Part shown: positions 2 through 10,978 of the stretch, one piece after another
Numbering within the stretch: position 1 is the stretch's first letter
Layout of the letters: each line of letters opens with the position of its first letter
DNA from: a bacterium
GTDB lineage: Bacteria; B130-G9
Reading direction: 5' to 3'
Length of the DNA stretch: 13,838 bases
NCBI GenBank assembly: GCA_021160245.1
Contig: JAGHCW010000105.1
Coordinates: forward strand, 1 to 13,838
Translations under genes and position numbers: made by a program
The notes under the pieces: generated by a model
What the model was told of the DNA's origin: nothing
Seen by the model: only the letters and a program-made list of their open reading frames with translations
Databases searched by the model: none

Positions 2-964
2 GGCAATTCCGCCGGCCGTTTTGGCGGGGGAATTAATTGCAACACCAACTGCTACGCAGTTATCAGAGACAACATCATAGCAGGAAACACGGCCGTGGTC
101 TGGGGTGGTGGGATATCCTCGAAGTACTACTGCTCATGCGCCATCTCAAACAACGTCATAAGTGGCAACACAGCAAATTACGGCGGGGGGATATCTGCTG
201 ACCAGTGGTGCACGCCGACAATTATGAATAACCTGATTGAGAGCAACAGCGCTACCACGGGAGGCGGGGCAATTTACTTCGCAATCGACACCGTGCCAAT
301 GATCGCCAACTGCACAATCGTCTCCAACACAGCGGATAGTATATGCGGCGGCGTATTCTCCGGAGACACAACAAGCATGCATACGATCATCGACTGTATC
401 ATCTGGGGCAATGGTGATGATCTGTTCGACTGCCAAGCCACCTATTGCTGCATCGAGGACGGTGACGTTGGCGAGGGCAACATCCACGACGATCCGATGT
501 TCGTGCCGGGTCAGTTGGGCGACTATTATCTCAATCCGCTCAGCCCATGCATCAACGCTGGAAGTCAATCGGCCGCGGCCGCGGGTCTCTCCGACAGGAC
601 GACACAGGCGGACGAGTCGCTGGATATGGACGAGGTCGATATGGGCTATCATTACGCTCTCTCGGACTCGACGCCGCCAAGCACGATCATCATCACATCG
701 CCGCCCGATTTCTACTACAACACGATCCTTTTGACCTGGACGCCGATTGTTGAGGCCGACCGTTATCTCTTCGAATACGACATTGGCGGGACAGTAGCCT
801 CTTTGGAGTGGCAGGACAGCTGGCTGAGGCTGATAGCTGGCGACCAGGGCGCATGGGCTGGCTTCGTCGGACTGGGCACAATGCATTACAGAGTCTCCGC
901 CCTGGATGCCTTGAACAACGTGATCGATGGCCCGACCGAGTGGATGGGCTGCACCTGTTATTGA
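2..964 (+). CDS. Right-handed beta-helix repeat surface protein, 5' end missing
   Basis: The reading frame is open from base 2, so the gene begins outside the window; the GTG at 95 is merely an internal codon. GGG(I/A) motifs recur at bases 23, 104, 182 and 260, with a weaker CGGV at 344, giving a period of 26-28 residues. Asn-rich 'N.I..GNTA' segments lie between them. This is the pattern of parallel beta-helix coils in pectate-lyase-like and Pmp-like secreted proteins. The helix ends near the motif DMGYHY (bases about 637-654), a common closing signature of such proteins. About 100 residues follow, beginning 'STIIITSPP', which look like a fibronectin-III-type beta sandwich (inferred from strand pattern only). 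No C-terminal LPXTG, PEP-CTERM or type IX sorting signal is visible. Likely exported and structural or adhesive; no catalytic residues can be assigned. Cysteines are frequent in the coils. The substrate or partner is unknown. Confidence 0.85.
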   Translation, partial: GNSAGRFGGGINCNTNCYAVIRDNIIAGNTAVVWGGGISSKYYCSCAISNNVISGNTANYGGGISADQWCTPTIMNNLIESNSATTGGGAIYFAIDTVPMIANCTIVSNTADSICGGVFSGDTTSMHTIIDCIIWGNGDDLFDCQATYCCIEDGDVGEGNIHDDPMFVPGQLGDYYLNPLSPCINAGSQSAAAAGLSDRTTQADESLDMDEVDMGYHYALSDSTPPSTIIITSPPDFYYNTILLTWTPIVEADRYLFEYDIGGTVASLEWQDSWLRLIAGDQGAWAGFVGLGTMHYRVSALDALNNVIDGPTEWMGCTCY

Positions 965-1037: not shown

Positions 1038-1064
1038 TTGGGGACACGCTGCGGCTGTCCCCAA
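1038..1064. repeat. Inverted repeat TTGGGGACA/TGTCCCCAA
   Basis: A 9-bp perfect inverted repeat (1038-1046 and 1056-1064) encloses a 9-nt GC-rich loop. No T-tract follows directly, although TTTTTT occurs about 10 bases later at 1074-1079. The 7-mer pair GGGGACA/TGTCCCC occurs again at 4170-4236, on the other side of the accessory block. Best described as a REP-like palindrome; a terminator for the beta-helix gene is the alternative. Confidence 0.55.
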
Positions 1065-1090
1065 TTCCATCGATTTTTTGAGAGAGTCAA

Positions 1091-1176
1091 CGGCACGTCT
1101 CCTGGGCGTCGCATCGAATCTTGATTGAAAGCGAAAGAGGGAAGAGATAGCCTTTAGGCATGGGAATCAAGATCAA
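1091..1176 (+). repeat. 86-bp direct repeat, copy 1 (leader and start of ATPase gene)
   Basis: This stretch matches 3100-3185 at 74 of 86 positions with no gaps. It holds the 69 nt before the ATPase start codon and its first 17 coding bases. All 12 differences lie in the upstream 69 nt; the 17 bases from ATG are identical. Identity stops abruptly after base 1176. The repeat includes purine-rich stretches (GAGG, AAGAGA) that may act in translation initiation, but no well-spaced Shine-Dalgarno motif is obvious. Confidence 0.9.
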
Positions 1177-2179
1177 GAAGCTCAGCATTCGCAACTTCAG
1201 GTGTATCGGTAGCCTCGACCTCGACTTCACCGATCCCGACGGCGCCCCCCTCGACCTCGTAGTCCTCGCCGGCCCCAACGGCTGCGGCAAGACCTCTGTG
1301 CTTGAGGCGATCCGCATCATCTGCGACCGAAAAGACCCGGACGATCCTGCAATAGAGGAAGTCCGGGTCGCAGACATCCGCCACGGATCGAAGAGATATG
1401 AAATCGACGTAATCCTGCAAAGTAATGCAAGTCCAGTTATGAAAGAGCCGCTGCATTTTGCAGGATCTATCGACAATGCGCCTCCTGCGTTTGAAATAGG
1501 AACAGACGATCCATCAAGCTACAAGATATGGCTCATAAAACTGAGTCAAATGCCCTTTGGATATCTGACATCCTGGCGGGACCAGAAGCTCGTGGCCTCG
1601 CTGCCGATCTCGGATGAGAAGCGAGACGGAGATGCAGTTTCCGAAGAGGCAGAACGGCTATTCGCCCTGCAGAAGAAATGTAAGAATCTTTGGCTCTACT
1701 CAGTCATGAATGGGCTTGATACTACTTCAAACCCCCAAGTGCGAGCTATCATTGATCCCCTTGAGAAGGTCTGGAAGATATTCTATCCAGGAGAGATGGC
1801 CGAATTTTTCATCAGATCAGTTGATCTGGATGATCCTGAGAGTGACTATAACCTGTACCTGCGCAGAAGGGACGGCACGGAAATCCCCGTGAACGATCTC
1901 AGTTCTGGCGAGATCGAGGTTCTGACCATGGCCGGGTGGCTCACGATGAACGATTATAGAGGCGGCATCGTTCTTATTGACGAACCAGAGATGCACATGC
2001 ATGTGCAGTGGCACCGGGCGATAATTAGGGCGCTGAGGGTGCTATTGCCTGAGACGCAGATCATCGTGGCGACGCATTCCTGGGACATTCTCAAGTCGGT
2101 AATGAGCTATGAGCGGTTCACTCTCCTGCGAGAAGGGGACCCTCGCATCGCGGTCGATTCTAAGGCCGTGATTCGTTGA
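1160..2179 (+). CDS. ABC/SMC-type AAA ATPase of a putative anti-phage pair (AriA/OLD-like)
   Basis: A 339-aa ATPase of the RecF/SMC/OLD type. The N-terminal strands 'KIKKLSIRNFRCIGSLDL' are typical of the family. Walker A is GPNGCGKT at residues 38-45, the ABC signature LSSGE at 247-251, Walker B with catalytic Glu is LIDEPE at about 272-277, and the H-loop His is H306 in 'ATHS'. All elements for ATP hydrolysis on dimerisation are present. There is no TOPRIM domain in this chain; a TOPRIM protein is encoded immediately downstream with a 4-nt overlap, so the two probably work as a split OLD-like or PARIS-like (AriA plus AriB) complex in the cytoplasm. In PARIS the ATPase senses a phage anti-restriction protein and releases the nuclease; that role is inferred here from architecture. 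ATG 1160 is chosen because it places the first beta strand at the N-terminus; it lies inside the 86-bp repeat. Alternatives are an overcoming-lysogenisation-like or retron-linked ATPase. Confidence 0.85.
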   Translation: MGIKIKKLSIRNFRCIGSLDLDFTDPDGAPLDLVVLAGPNGCGKTSVLEAIRIICDRKDPDDPAIEEVRVADIRHGSKRYEIDVILQSNASPVMKEPLHFAGSIDNAPPAFEIGTDDPSSYKIWLIKLSQMPFGYLTSWRDQKLVASLPISDEKRDGDAVSEEAERLFALQKKCKNLWLYSVMNGLDTTSNPQVRAIIDPLEKVWKIFYPGEMAEFFIRSVDLDDPESDYNLYLRRRDGTEIPVNDLSSGEIEVLTMAGWLTMNDYRGGIVLIDEPEMHMHVQWHRAIIRALRVLLPETQIIVATHSWDILKSVMSYERFTLLREGDPRIAVDSKAVIR

Positions 2180-3039
2180 GCAGCCAAGCCGGCGCCCACG
2201 AATTATATGATGCGGTAGCAGCCCCAGTTATCGTTTGGGTAGAAGATGCGCTCACGGAAGCTTATCTTAATAGATTGTGGGAGGACAACGAAATCCGTAT
2301 TCTTGTGGCTGGTTGCGGCCCCACCGTCGGGGCGGCAACTACTGATGCCCACAAGGCGGGTGCCAAATTCGTTTTTGGCGTGCGAGATAGGGATTTCGGC
2401 AAGACCAACTTCACGAGTTGGCCCAACGACTCCAAACAGATTAGGGTATTCCGGCCTCCTCGGCATGAGATCGAGAACTATCTCCTTGATTGGGAAGCTC
2501 TTGCTGGTTGCAGTGAGAACCGGCGGGGCAGGCAAGCCCATGACATCGAAGCAGATGTAAGAAAGCACGCGGTCAGTCTGAATTGGTGGTTAGCTACCGT
2601 GAGAACGCTTTTTGATCTGAGCACCGAGCTGACCAGGAAATTCCCTGGATCACCGGGGCAGACGAAGATCAACACCTATCAGGAGGCCGTTGTATATATT
2701 TTGAACCAGGGGAATTGGCATTCCCATGTCTGCAAGCTGCCCGAGACTTCACTGAAAAATGACAAGATCGAGTCACTGCTGAAATCCCACAAGAAGCAGA
2801 TCGATAAGGCTTCAAATGGTGAAGAGTGGATTAAGACATTTCCCGGCAAGGAGCTGTTGGGGAAGGCAAGCGCATTTATCAGAACAAGACCGAAGAACGT
2901 AAAAAAGCCGACGCACGACATCGACCTGGCCAAAGCCATCGCCGGCTGGCAGGTTACCAACAACCAGCGGCCCTCGGACCTCATGACCTTGCGGCAGTGT
3001 TTGCGGCAAAGGGCGGGGCTTCCGCAGGCGGCAATATGA
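2176..3039 (+). CDS. TOPRIM (DUF4435-like) putative nuclease, partner of the ATPase
   Basis: A 287-aa soluble protein. TOPRIM-like elements are visible: 'VIVWVED' with the conserved acid E23, a Gly-containing turn (VAGCGPTVGA, 44-53), and 'FGVRDRDFG' with D71 and D73, followed by 'RHEIENYLLD' (96-105). The DRD and IENYL motifs are hallmarks I associate with DUF4435, the family of the PARIS effector AriB. E23 and D71/D73 would bind Mg2+ in a nuclease; AriB cleaves tRNA in PARIS, but the target here is unknown. The C-terminal part (about 110-287) has no motif I recognise. Translation is expected from TTG at 2176, whose bases form TTGA with the ATPase stop; AAGG at 2162-2165 is a plausible ribosome binding site, and no in-frame ATG occurs early. 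The overlap argues for coupled synthesis and a stoichiometric complex. Homology is motif-based, not searched. Confidence 0.75.
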   Translation: MSSQAGAHELYDAVAAPVIVWVEDALTEAYLNRLWEDNEIRILVAGCGPTVGAATTDAHKAGAKFVFGVRDRDFGKTNFTSWPNDSKQIRVFRPPRHEIENYLLDWEALAGCSENRRGRQAHDIEADVRKHAVSLNWWLATVRTLFDLSTELTRKFPGSPGQTKINTYQEAVVYILNQGNWHSHVCKLPETSLKNDKIESLLKSHKKQIDKASNGEEWIKTFPGKELLGKASAFIRTRPKNVKKPTHDIDLAKAIAGWQVTNNQRPSDLMTLRQCLRQRAGLPQAAI

Positions 3040-3099
3040 GGGGCAACCCGCTGAAAGGCGAGACCGTCCTCCATCTTCCAGAAATCGTCCTCAAACCAT

Positions 3100-3185
3100 C
3101 GGCAAGCCTCTTGGGCGTCGGCTCGAATCTTGATTGAAAGCGGAATGGGTAAGAGATAGTCTCTAGACATGGGAATCAAGATCAA
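3100..3185 (+). repeat. 86-bp direct repeat, copy 2 (before the methyltransferase)
   Basis: Second copy of the sequence at 1091-1176 (74/86 identical, ungapped). It carries an ATG at 3169 that corresponds to the ATPase start, with the first five ATPase codons intact, but then diverges and runs into the methyltransferase start region. The ATPase-TOPRIM pair is therefore bracketed by direct repeats about 2.0 kb apart. It may be the scar of a tandem duplication or gene replacement, or a mobile leader sequence shared by defence genes. Confidence 0.9.
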
Positions 3186-3261
3186 ACGAGGATTGTTATG
3201 GAAGCCTATTTCAAGAAAGCGGGAGTGCGGCTCTTCCTTGGAGATGCGGTCGAAGTACTGA
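3169..3261 (+). other. 30-codon ORF from the duplicated ATPase start, overlapping the methyltransferase start
   Basis: ATG at 3169 is the repeat-borne equivalent of the ATPase start. The frame encodes MGIKIK as in the ATPase, then unrelated residues, and stops with TGA at 3259-3261. It overlaps the first 64 bases of the methyltransferase gene in another frame. It is either a non-functional remnant or an upstream ORF that could affect methyltransferase translation. Expression is not shown by the sequence. Confidence 0.3.
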
Positions 3262-4055
3262 ACCAGCTGCCGGAGGATAGTGTCGATCTGGTTTTCTCCG
3301 ATCCGCCCTATAATCTGTCCAATGATGGCTTCACCTGCCATGCGGGGAAGCGTGTTAGTGTCAACAAGGGAAAATGGGACAAAAGTCAGGGGGTTGAGTC
3401 TGACTTTGCTTTTCATTTCAACTGGATTGAGGCCTGCAGAAGGGTCTTGAAGCCAAGTGGCTCGTTTTGGGTCTCCGGGACCTATCATTCCATATATGCC
3501 TGCGGTTTCGCACTCCAAAAACAGGGCTGGCACATCATCAACGACATCTGTTGGTTCAAGCCGAACGCGGCCCCGAATCTCTCCTGCAGAATGTTCACCG
3601 CAAGTCACGAGACACTGATCTGGGCAAGGAAAGACAAAAGGGGGCAACACACATTCAATTATGACGCCATGAAAAATGGAGAATGGGATAGGGATATTCT
3701 CAAGAAGCCCGGGAAACAGATGAGGAGCATTTGGGCTATCAACACCCCTCGAAATGGCGAGAAAAAATATGGCAAACACCCCACCCAAAAACCTGAAGAC
3801 CTTCTGGAGCGCATAATCCTTGCCTGCAGCAATGAGGGTGACATTGTTCTCGACCCGTTTTCTGGTAGCGCAACAACAGGTGTTACCGCAGTACGACATA
3901 ACCGGAAATTCATTGGAATAGACTTGGAGCAAGAGTATCTGGACAAGTTCGCGATCCCGCGAATCGACGACGAGATCATAAAGCAAGAACGTAAATCGGC
4001 TGCTGCGTACCCCAAGACTCAAGCACAGCCATCAGAGCAAGTTCTGACGCTTTGA
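3198..4055 (+). CDS. Beta-group DNA methyltransferase (N6-adenine or N4-cytosine)
   Basis: A 285-aa S-adenosylmethionine-dependent DNA methyltransferase. Catalytic motif IV is DPPYNLS starting at D35, preceded by 'LFLGDAVEVLNQLPEDSVDLV' region features near the N-terminus. The AdoMet-binding motif I is DPFSGSATTG at 219-228, followed by 'FIGIDLEQEYL'. A 'HPTQKP' element precedes motif I. The order motif IV - recognition region - motif I defines the beta group. The middle section contains 'CWFKPNAAPNLSCR' and 'SHETLIWA', seen in many beta-class type II enzymes. DPPY means an exocyclic amino group is methylated; adenine is more likely, but the recognition site cannot be read. ATG 3198 is supported by GAGGA ending 5 nt upstream. 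It follows the TOPRIM gene by 158 bases. It might protect host DNA as part of the ATPase-TOPRIM module or be an independent orphan. Base composition appears AT-richer than mfd. Confidence 0.92.
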   Translation: MEAYFKKAGVRLFLGDAVEVLNQLPEDSVDLVFSDPPYNLSNDGFTCHAGKRVSVNKGKWDKSQGVESDFAFHFNWIEACRRVLKPSGSFWVSGTYHSIYACGFALQKQGWHIINDICWFKPNAAPNLSCRMFTASHETLIWARKDKRGQHTFNYDAMKNGEWDRDILKKPGKQMRSIWAINTPRNGEKKYGKHPTQKPEDLLERIILACSNEGDIVLDPFSGSATTGVTAVRHNRKFIGIDLEQEYLDKFAIPRIDDEIIKQERKSAAAYPKTQAQPSEQVLTL

Positions 4056-4169
4056 TATTCGCCTCACGAAAAATCGCTCGCCGAAGATCGCCCCTATAAC
4101 CCCCTTATTTGGAACCCGAATTTCTCAAGCAGTTCATTGGACTGACAAAGCTCCCTCAGTTCCCTGAAA

Positions 4170-4236
4170 GGGGACAATATGAGTAGCCCCGTGTGAAACG
4201 CGGGGATTCCGCCCAAGCACGCCCTCCTCTGTCCCC
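4170..4236. repeat. Nested inverted repeats between methyltransferase and mfd
   Basis: Outer arms GGGGACA (4170-4176) and TGTCCCC (4230-4236) enclose an inner hairpin: CCCCGTG (4187-4193), loop TGAAA, CGCGGGG (4199-4205) with one G-T pair. The outer arms match the palindrome at 1040-1062. The region separates convergent genes, so it may assist termination on both strands, but no T-tract follows the inner hairpin on either strand. The rest of 4056-4256 shows nothing further. Confidence 0.5.
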
Positions 4237-4256
4237 GAACACATAAATCGTCCCCC

Positions 4257-10693: not shown

Positions 10694-10713
10694 AGCAACT
10701 GTCAGGTTTTTTC

Positions 10714-10846
10714 GGAGTGCGGCGGCTTGACGCCGCTTTGGTTCGTCGCGGCTTGACGCGACACCAGCTACTATAAATCGGCTCCTGTCATTACAGCGCG
10801 GCGCCTGGCCACCGCATACTGAAGCGGCGTGAACCCGCCGCACTCC
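10714..10846. repeat. REP/MITE-like element with 25-bp inverted arms
   Basis: Left arm 10714-10738 and right arm 10822-10846 are inverted copies matching at 23 of 25 positions (GGAGTGCGGCGG...ACGCCGCTT). The element lies in the 308-base divergent region 10681-10988 between the 241-aa gene and pal. It encodes no protein I can support and shows no clear target-site duplication. It may be a non-autonomous mobile or REP-type repeat; other genomic copies would confirm this. The remainder of the region (10847-10978) is unremarkable apart from an AT-rich stretch with TATAAT at 10928-10933. Confidence 0.65.
10719..10762. repeat. Two tandem hairpins with identical GCTTGA loops
   Basis: Hairpin 1: GCGGCG (10719-10724), loop GCTTGA, CGCCGC (10731-10736). 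Hairpin 2: GTCGCG (10745-10750), loop GCTTGA, CGCGAC (10757-10762). Both stems are perfect 6-bp and the loops are identical while the stem sequences differ. This is the mark of a repeated structured motif. They form the left part of the 10714-10846 element. Confidence 0.7.
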
Positions 10847-10978
10847 AAACCGCCAGAGCCGCCAGTATCAATCTGATTTCTCGTCTCATCTCGTTGCTCT
10901 TGACCCGGGCTATTCTCACAGCTAACATATAATACTATGAATGCATTATTTTGCGACTTGTGAACTTTTTTGGGGACT

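What the first reader, a model, noticed from the sequence alone, without database searches (positions are those of the whole stretch)
1091..3185. 86-bp direct repeats bracket the ATPase-TOPRIM pair and include the ATPase start codon
1091-1176 and 3100-3185 match at 74/86 positions without gaps. All 12 changes are in the leader; the 17 nt from ATG are identical. Identity ends abruptly in the coding region. This suggests a tandem duplication followed by replacement of the second ATPase body by the methyltransferase, or a recombination site for swapping defence cassettes. Recombination between the copies would delete the pair.
Basis: seen in the sequence. Interest (0 to 1): 0.75.

Follow-up and report, generated by a model that had tools for sequence, protein, structure and literature searches.

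The report
Copied promoter before methyltransferase gene
The two 86-base repeats are two copies of one promoter: the one that starts an anti-phage gene pair appears to have been duplicated and now also sits in front of a neighbouring DNA-methyltransferase gene, a neat but fairly ordinary case of promoter capture.

Summary
The repeat is real: 1091-1176 and 3100-3185 match at 74/86 without gaps (76/89 over 1088-1176/3097-3185). These are the only two copies in the 3.43-Mb genome, which is related to Candidatus Coatesbacteria. Relatives G001 and G002 carry the ATPase-TOPRIM pair with one leader and no methyltransferase. All three ATPase leaders and copy 2 share TTGAAA-N17-TA(G/A)(C/T)CT-N6-ATG, ungapped. 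In the three species 11 of 12 hexamer positions are invariant, against 3/23 in the spacers and 5/55 further upstream. That layout fits a promoter giving a leaderless ATPase mRNA. Copy 2 carries the same promoter-like block plus the first 17 transcribed bases, ending 2 nt before the Shine-Dalgarno sequence of a horizontally mobile CcrM/DpnA-like methyltransferase. No trace of a second ATPase or TOPRIM body was found. Best explanation: a lineage-specific promoter duplication that put an acquired methyltransferase under the same promoter as a divergent PARIS-like pair. Shown: repeat, footprint, junction, single-copy relatives. Inferred: promoter activity, leaderless start, co-expression. Interest is modest.

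The parts
1088..1176 (+). Repeat copy 1: native ATPase promoter region plus the first 17 nt of the ATPase gene
1125..1130 (+). -35-like hexamer TTGAAA, copy 1, invariant in all four leaders
1148..1153 (+). -10-like hexamer TAGCCT, 17 nt after the -35 and 6 nt before ATG
1118..1126 (+). Left arm ATCTTGATT of a 9-bp dyad around the promoter (right arm 1165-1173); same pair in copy 2 at 3127-3135 and 3174-3182; possible operator, untested
   Evidence: read from sequence
1160..2179 (+). ABC/OLD-type ATPase, AAA_15/AAA_21, AriA-like (339 aa)
2176..3039 (+). TOPRIM/DUF4435-like, divergent AriB-like (287 aa); E23 and D71xD73 invariant in three species
3097..3185 (+). Repeat copy 2: copied promoter block plus 17 nt of ATPase start
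3134..3139 (+). -35-like hexamer TTGAAA, copy 2
3157..3162 (+). -10-like hexamer TAGTCT, copy 2
3169..3261 (+). 30-codon ORF opened by the copied ATG, out of frame with and overlapping the methyltransferase start
3188..3192 (+). GAGGA, Shine-Dalgarno of the methyltransferase, 5 nt before its ATG and 2 nt after the repeat ends
   Evidence: the homologue in L021 has GAGGAGGA before its start
3198..4055 (+). N6_N4 DNA methyltransferase, CcrM/DpnA-like, no restriction enzyme beside it (285 aa)

Best explanation
The repeat is a duplicated promoter. Copy 1 is the native promoter of a divergent PARIS-like ATPase-TOPRIM operon. A -35-like TTGAAA, a 17-nt spacer and a -10-like TANNNT end 6 nt before the ATG, so transcription should start at or next to the ATG and the ATPase mRNA should be leaderless. 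In the lineage of this genome a copy of that block, promoter plus the first 17 transcribed bases, came to lie directly in front of an acquired solitary DNA methyltransferase gene that kept its own Shine-Dalgarno sequence. The copied ATG and 17 nt are now the 5' end of the methyltransferase leader rather than its coding start. The likely effect is that the methyltransferase is expressed from the same type of promoter, and under any same control, as the ATPase-TOPRIM pair. Shown: repeat, conserved spacing and hexamers, exact junction, absence of copy 2 and methyltransferase in relatives. Inferred: promoter activity, leaderless start, co-expression, and the order of events.
For: Repeat and its uniqueness. 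The leaders of the ATPase in G000, G001 and G002, and copy 2, align without gaps from TTGAAA to ATG. Within this block the 12 hexamer positions are 11/12 invariant in three species, against 3/23 for spacer plus gap and 5/55 upstream (Fisher p 9e-6 against the spacer alone; post hoc choice of elements). In the four family genomes the pattern TTGAAA-N17-TANNNT-N6-ATG occurs 7 times; 4 of the 7 are exactly these leaders, and the reversed control pattern occurs 0 times; 5 Mb of simulated sequence gives 0. TANNNT about 12 bp before the start codon is the described mark of leaderless genes in bacteria (PMC3160421), and no SD lies at normal distance before the three ATPase starts. The repeat ends 2 nt before the methyltransferase SD, and protein homology to its relatives begins at its first residues. 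The methyltransferase is 70% identical to one in a distant phylum but 65% to one in its own family, and is absent beside the pair in G001 and G002, as expected for an acquired gene.
Against: The -10 hexamers match TATAAT at only 3 of 6, and a standard sigma-70 scan with its threshold finds no promoter here. A sample of about 246 kb of this genome shows no general excess of promoter-like sites at leaderless distance. The hexamers were picked after seeing the alignment, so the p-values are optimistic. Only three species are available. No expression data.
Confidence: 0.68

Rival explanations
1. Relic of a tandem duplication of the whole ATPase (or ATPase-TOPRIM) unit, whose second body was then replaced or deleted by the arrival of the methyltransferase; the promoter in copy 2 is what was left.
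For: Copy 2 contains the ATPase start codon and 17 nt of coding sequence and sits just behind the first unit, where a tandem copy would begin. The end point is compatible.
Against: No trace of ATPase or TOPRIM sequence in 3040-3096 or 4056-4256; no second ATPase or TOPRIM relative elsewhere in the genome; no relative with two units. The junction 2 nt before the methyltransferase SD needs a precise deletion. It cannot be excluded, since a complete deletion leaves nothing.
Confidence: 0.2
2. Recombination or integration site flanking a mobile defence cassette (att-like or target-site duplication); the pair would be excised or exchanged through the repeats.
For: Direct repeats bracket the pair; in G001 the pair sits 145 bp behind a tRNA-Leu gene, and the three pairs have different downstream neighbours, so the pair does move between places.
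Against: The 86-mer is found nowhere else in this genome or in 97 others; the pairs in G001 and G002 have only one leader and no flanking repeat; no integrase or transposase ORF among those I could assign in the window, and no marked single-strand fold. The only conserved core is spaced like a promoter and sits at the start codon.
Confidence: 0.07
3. The shared block is an operator region kept similar by selection: the 9-bp dyad ATCTTGATT/AATCAAGAT around the promoter binds a regulator so that pair and methyltransferase respond together.
For: Both dyad arms are identical in the two copies, and in copy 2 the right arm is no longer ATPase coding sequence yet has 0 changes in 17 nt while the leader has 12 in 69 (chance 0.058).
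Against: The right arm encodes the conserved IKIK of the ATPase in copy 1, the left arm is not conserved in G001 or G002, no regulator gene is present, and the 0.058 is weak. This would add to, rather than replace, the promoter reading.
Confidence: 0.05

Closest known systems
PARIS (AriA ATPase + AriB Toprim/DUF4435), PMC9122126 and PMC12409363
   Same: Two adjacent overlapping genes, AAA_15/AAA_21 ATPase then TOPRIM-like protein; the TOPRIM members match PADLOC AriAB and AriB profiles and two of three match DUF4435.
   Different: The window's TOPRIM protein scores 14.7 bits against DUF4435, below the 27-bit cut-off; the ATPase is shorter (339 aa against 464 aa for the solved AriA chains) and scores best against PtuA profiles; restricted to this family of Coatesbacteria in the genomes searched; has a methyltransferase beside it.
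Leaderless genes with TANNNT about 10-12 bp before the start codon (PMC3160421)
   Same: TA(G/A)(C/T)CT lies at -12..-7 before ATG, with TTGAAA 17 nt before it and no SD, in three species.
   Different: Not a general feature of the genome sample examined; no transcript data.
Solitary beta-class adenine methyltransferases (CcrM, DpnA type)
   Same: N6_N4_Mtase domain, best solved relative CcrM 6pbd (E 1e-58), then H. pylori DpnA; no restriction enzyme alongside.
   Different: Far below the NCBIfam CcrM cut-off (245 of 830 bits); target sequence unknown; placed behind a copied defence promoter.

Membership tests
PARIS | ATPase with AAA_15 (32 bits) or AAA_21 (27 bits) | tested here: met
   89.6 and 86.3 bits
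PARIS | Adjacent DUF4435 protein at 27 bits or more | tested here: not met
   Window protein 14.7 bits, E 0.027; two of three family members match, best E 2e-6. AriAB profile E 2.4e-10
PARIS | TOPRIM catalytic residues (Glu after strand 1, DxD) | tested here: inconclusive
   E23 and D71xD73 invariant in three species; structure model too poor to place them (pLDDT 40.6)
PARIS | Triggered by anti-restriction protein, abortive defence by tRNA cleavage | not testable with these tools
   needs expression in a laboratory strain
Leaderless gene | TANNNT at -12..-7 before start, no SD | tested here: met
   three ATPase leaders
Leaderless gene | Transcript 5' end at the start codon | not testable with these tools
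   no RNA data
Integration or att-site repeat | Further copies at other insertions, flanking repeats in relatives, or a recombinase | tested here: not met
   no recombinase among the window ORFs assigned
Solitary DNA methyltransferase | DNA methylase domain without a cognate restriction gene adjacent | tested here: met
   neighbours are TOPRIM and mfd

The most novel reading that the evidence does not exclude
The methyltransferase has been recruited as a third, co-regulated component of a divergent PARIS-like system (for example as the guarded modification activity whose inhibition by a phage anti-restriction protein triggers the pair), with the duplicated leaderless promoter as the device that coupled them.
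Probability: 0.1. Interest if true: 0.6.

Novelty: new member of a known kind. Interest (0 to 1): 0.3.

Why it matters
It shows a concrete route by which an accessory gene can be wired into a defence locus: copying of a compact leaderless promoter to just before the ribosome-binding site of an incoming gene. If co-expression is real, it makes testable whether a solitary methyltransferase works together with a PARIS-like pair. It also replaces the cassette-swap reading, which would have been of wider interest.

Tried and rejected
Standard sigma-70 scan: no site at its threshold. Genome-wide leaderless signal: none in about 246 kb. Coding on the minus strand through the repeat: an open frame exists in both copies, but most differences would change the residue (LILIPMPKGYLFPLSLSIKIRCDAQETCR against LILIPMSRDYLLPIPLSIKIRADAQEACR), so no sign of a protein; a search for that stretch failed on stop codons in the frame I gave and was not repeated. 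Structured DNA or RNA element: no unusual folding, no Rfam match. Remnants of a second ATPase or TOPRIM: none. Phage, plasmid and viral-contig searches for the pair: no close relative. The other three family hits of the promoter pattern lie in front of or inside unrelated genes, so there is no evident regulon. TOPRIM structure model unusable (pLDDT 40.6), so no fold search was made. Literature on Coatesbacteria defence systems or promoter duplication of this kind: nothing found.

Full report
Observation. The repeat is present as described. 1091-1176 and 3100-3185 agree at 74 of 86 positions without gaps; three more bases can be added at the 5' side (1088/3097), giving 76 of 89. Outside, identity drops to background (21/60 before, 14/60 after). 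In the 3.43-Mb genome the 86-mer has exactly these two matches, the second with E 5.8e-23. A search of 98 genomes (own plus 97 others) with 1040-1180 gives only short partial hits elsewhere, several of them to the GGGGACA...TGTCCCC element at 1040-1072 just before the repeat.

What the repeat is. The ATPase gene has orthologues in two other genera of the same family, G001 (61% identical) and G002 (55%, also found as a Candidatus Coatesbacteria contig, L011). Each is followed by the overlapping or adjacent TOPRIM gene and by no methyltransferase. When the three ATPase leaders and copy 2 are set by their ATG, they align without gaps for 35 nt and share TTGAAA-N17-TA(G/A)(C/T)CT-N6-ATG. In the three species 11 of 12 hexamer positions are invariant, against 3 of 23 in the spacer and gap and 5 of 55 further upstream. 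The elements were chosen after looking, so the p-values (9e-6 against the spacer alone) are optimistic. The pattern TTGAAA-N17-TANNNT-N6-ATG was then searched in all four family genomes: 7 hits, of which 4 are these leaders, and none for the reversed pattern; simulated sequence gave none in 5 Mb. The same footprint is seen when G000 and G002 are compared by BLAST: similarity runs to the end of the upstream beta-helix gene (969), is lost, and resumes at 1146.

A -10-like TANNNT at about 12 bp before the start codon is the published mark of leaderless genes in bacteria (PMC3160421). None of the three ATPase starts has a Shine-Dalgarno sequence at normal distance (read). I therefore read copy 1 as a promoter whose transcript begins at the ATPase ATG. 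Counterpoints: the -10 hexamers agree with TATAAT at only three positions, a threshold scan reports no promoter here, and a sample of about 246 kb of this genome shows no general leaderless signal.

Copy 2. The copied block ends at 3185. The methyltransferase's own GAGGA (3188-3192) follows after 2 nt and its ATG at 3198. Protein homology to relatives starts at the first residues, and the relative in L021 has GAGGAGGA before its start. The copied ATG at 3169 opens only a 30-codon ORF out of frame with the methyltransferase. So copy 2 looks like promoter plus initial transcribed bases joined to a gene that kept its own ribosome-binding site. The methyltransferase is 70% identical to one in a genome from another phylum and 65% to one at an unrelated place in G002, whose upstream sequence shows no such leader. 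That points to an acquired gene. Copies 1 and 2 are closer to each other (28/35 in -35..-1) than copy 1 is to the leaders of G001 (20/35) or G002 (22/35), so the duplication is most simply placed in this lineage after the genera split.

Tandem duplication or recombination site. Nothing of a second ATPase or TOPRIM gene remains between TOPRIM and copy 2 or between the methyltransferase and mfd, and the genome has no other relative of either protein. Relatives have no flanking repeat. G002 has the same order beta-helix gene, ATPase, TOPRIM with one leader, though its next gene is ftsK rather than mfd. In G001 the pair lies 145 bp behind a tRNA-Leu gene. The pair may thus be mobile, but the repeat is not what marks its ends in relatives. 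A fully deleted tandem copy cannot be excluded.

The gene pair. The ATPase matches AAA_15/AAA_21 and PADLOC AriA and PtuA profiles. The TOPRIM protein matches AriAB at 2.4e-10 but DUF4435 at only 14.7 bits, under the cut-off used to call PARIS (thresholds in PMC9122126). I call it PARIS-like and do not file it as PARIS. A structure model was too poor to use. In 386 genomes the TOPRIM profile found only the three family members.

Possible regulation. A 9-bp dyad, ATCTTGATT at 1118-1126 and AATCAAGAT at 1165-1173, lies around the promoter in both copies. The second arm is also the coding sequence for the conserved IKIK motif, and the first is not conserved in the relatives, so it may be chance. 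The absence of any change in the 17 nt after ATG in copy 2, where it no longer codes for ATPase, has a chance of 0.058 given the 12 leader changes; this is weak.

Verdict. A confirmed repeat, best explained as a lineage-specific promoter duplication that placed an acquired methyltransferase behind the promoter of a PARIS-like pair. Transcription start and co-expression are inferred and need RNA data.

Noticed in passing
window 1160-2179: Across three genera the ATPase is nearly invariant at its N-terminus (1-53) and C-terminus (247-339) but very divergent in the middle (about 54-246), as if the middle were a fast-changing sensor part.
   Followed up: no
window 461-960; L123 4049-4548 (G000:C27): The C-terminal part of the beta-helix ORF has a 79% identical DNA copy elsewhere in the genome, starting abruptly at the stop of a glycosyltransferase gene, which suggests mosaic recombination among these surface-protein genes.
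   Followed up: partly
window 1040-1072: GGGGACACGCTGCGGCTGTCCCCAATTCCATCG, a palindromic element just before the repeat, has dispersed copies in the relatives G001 and G003.
   Followed up: no
window 10709-10849: A 49-nt imperfect inverted repeat; pieces of it match an intergenic region of G001 (L120 around 6100) at up to 100% over 28 nt, so probably a family-wide dispersed repeat.
   Followed up: no
L120 11214-11302 and 11448-13365 (G001): In G001 the ATPase-TOPRIM pair sits directly behind a tRNA-Leu gene, a typical insertion hotspot.
   Followed up: partly
window 3169-3261: The copied ATG opens a 30-codon ORF overlapping the methyltransferase start in another frame; if translated it could damp methyltransferase synthesis.
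   Followed up: no
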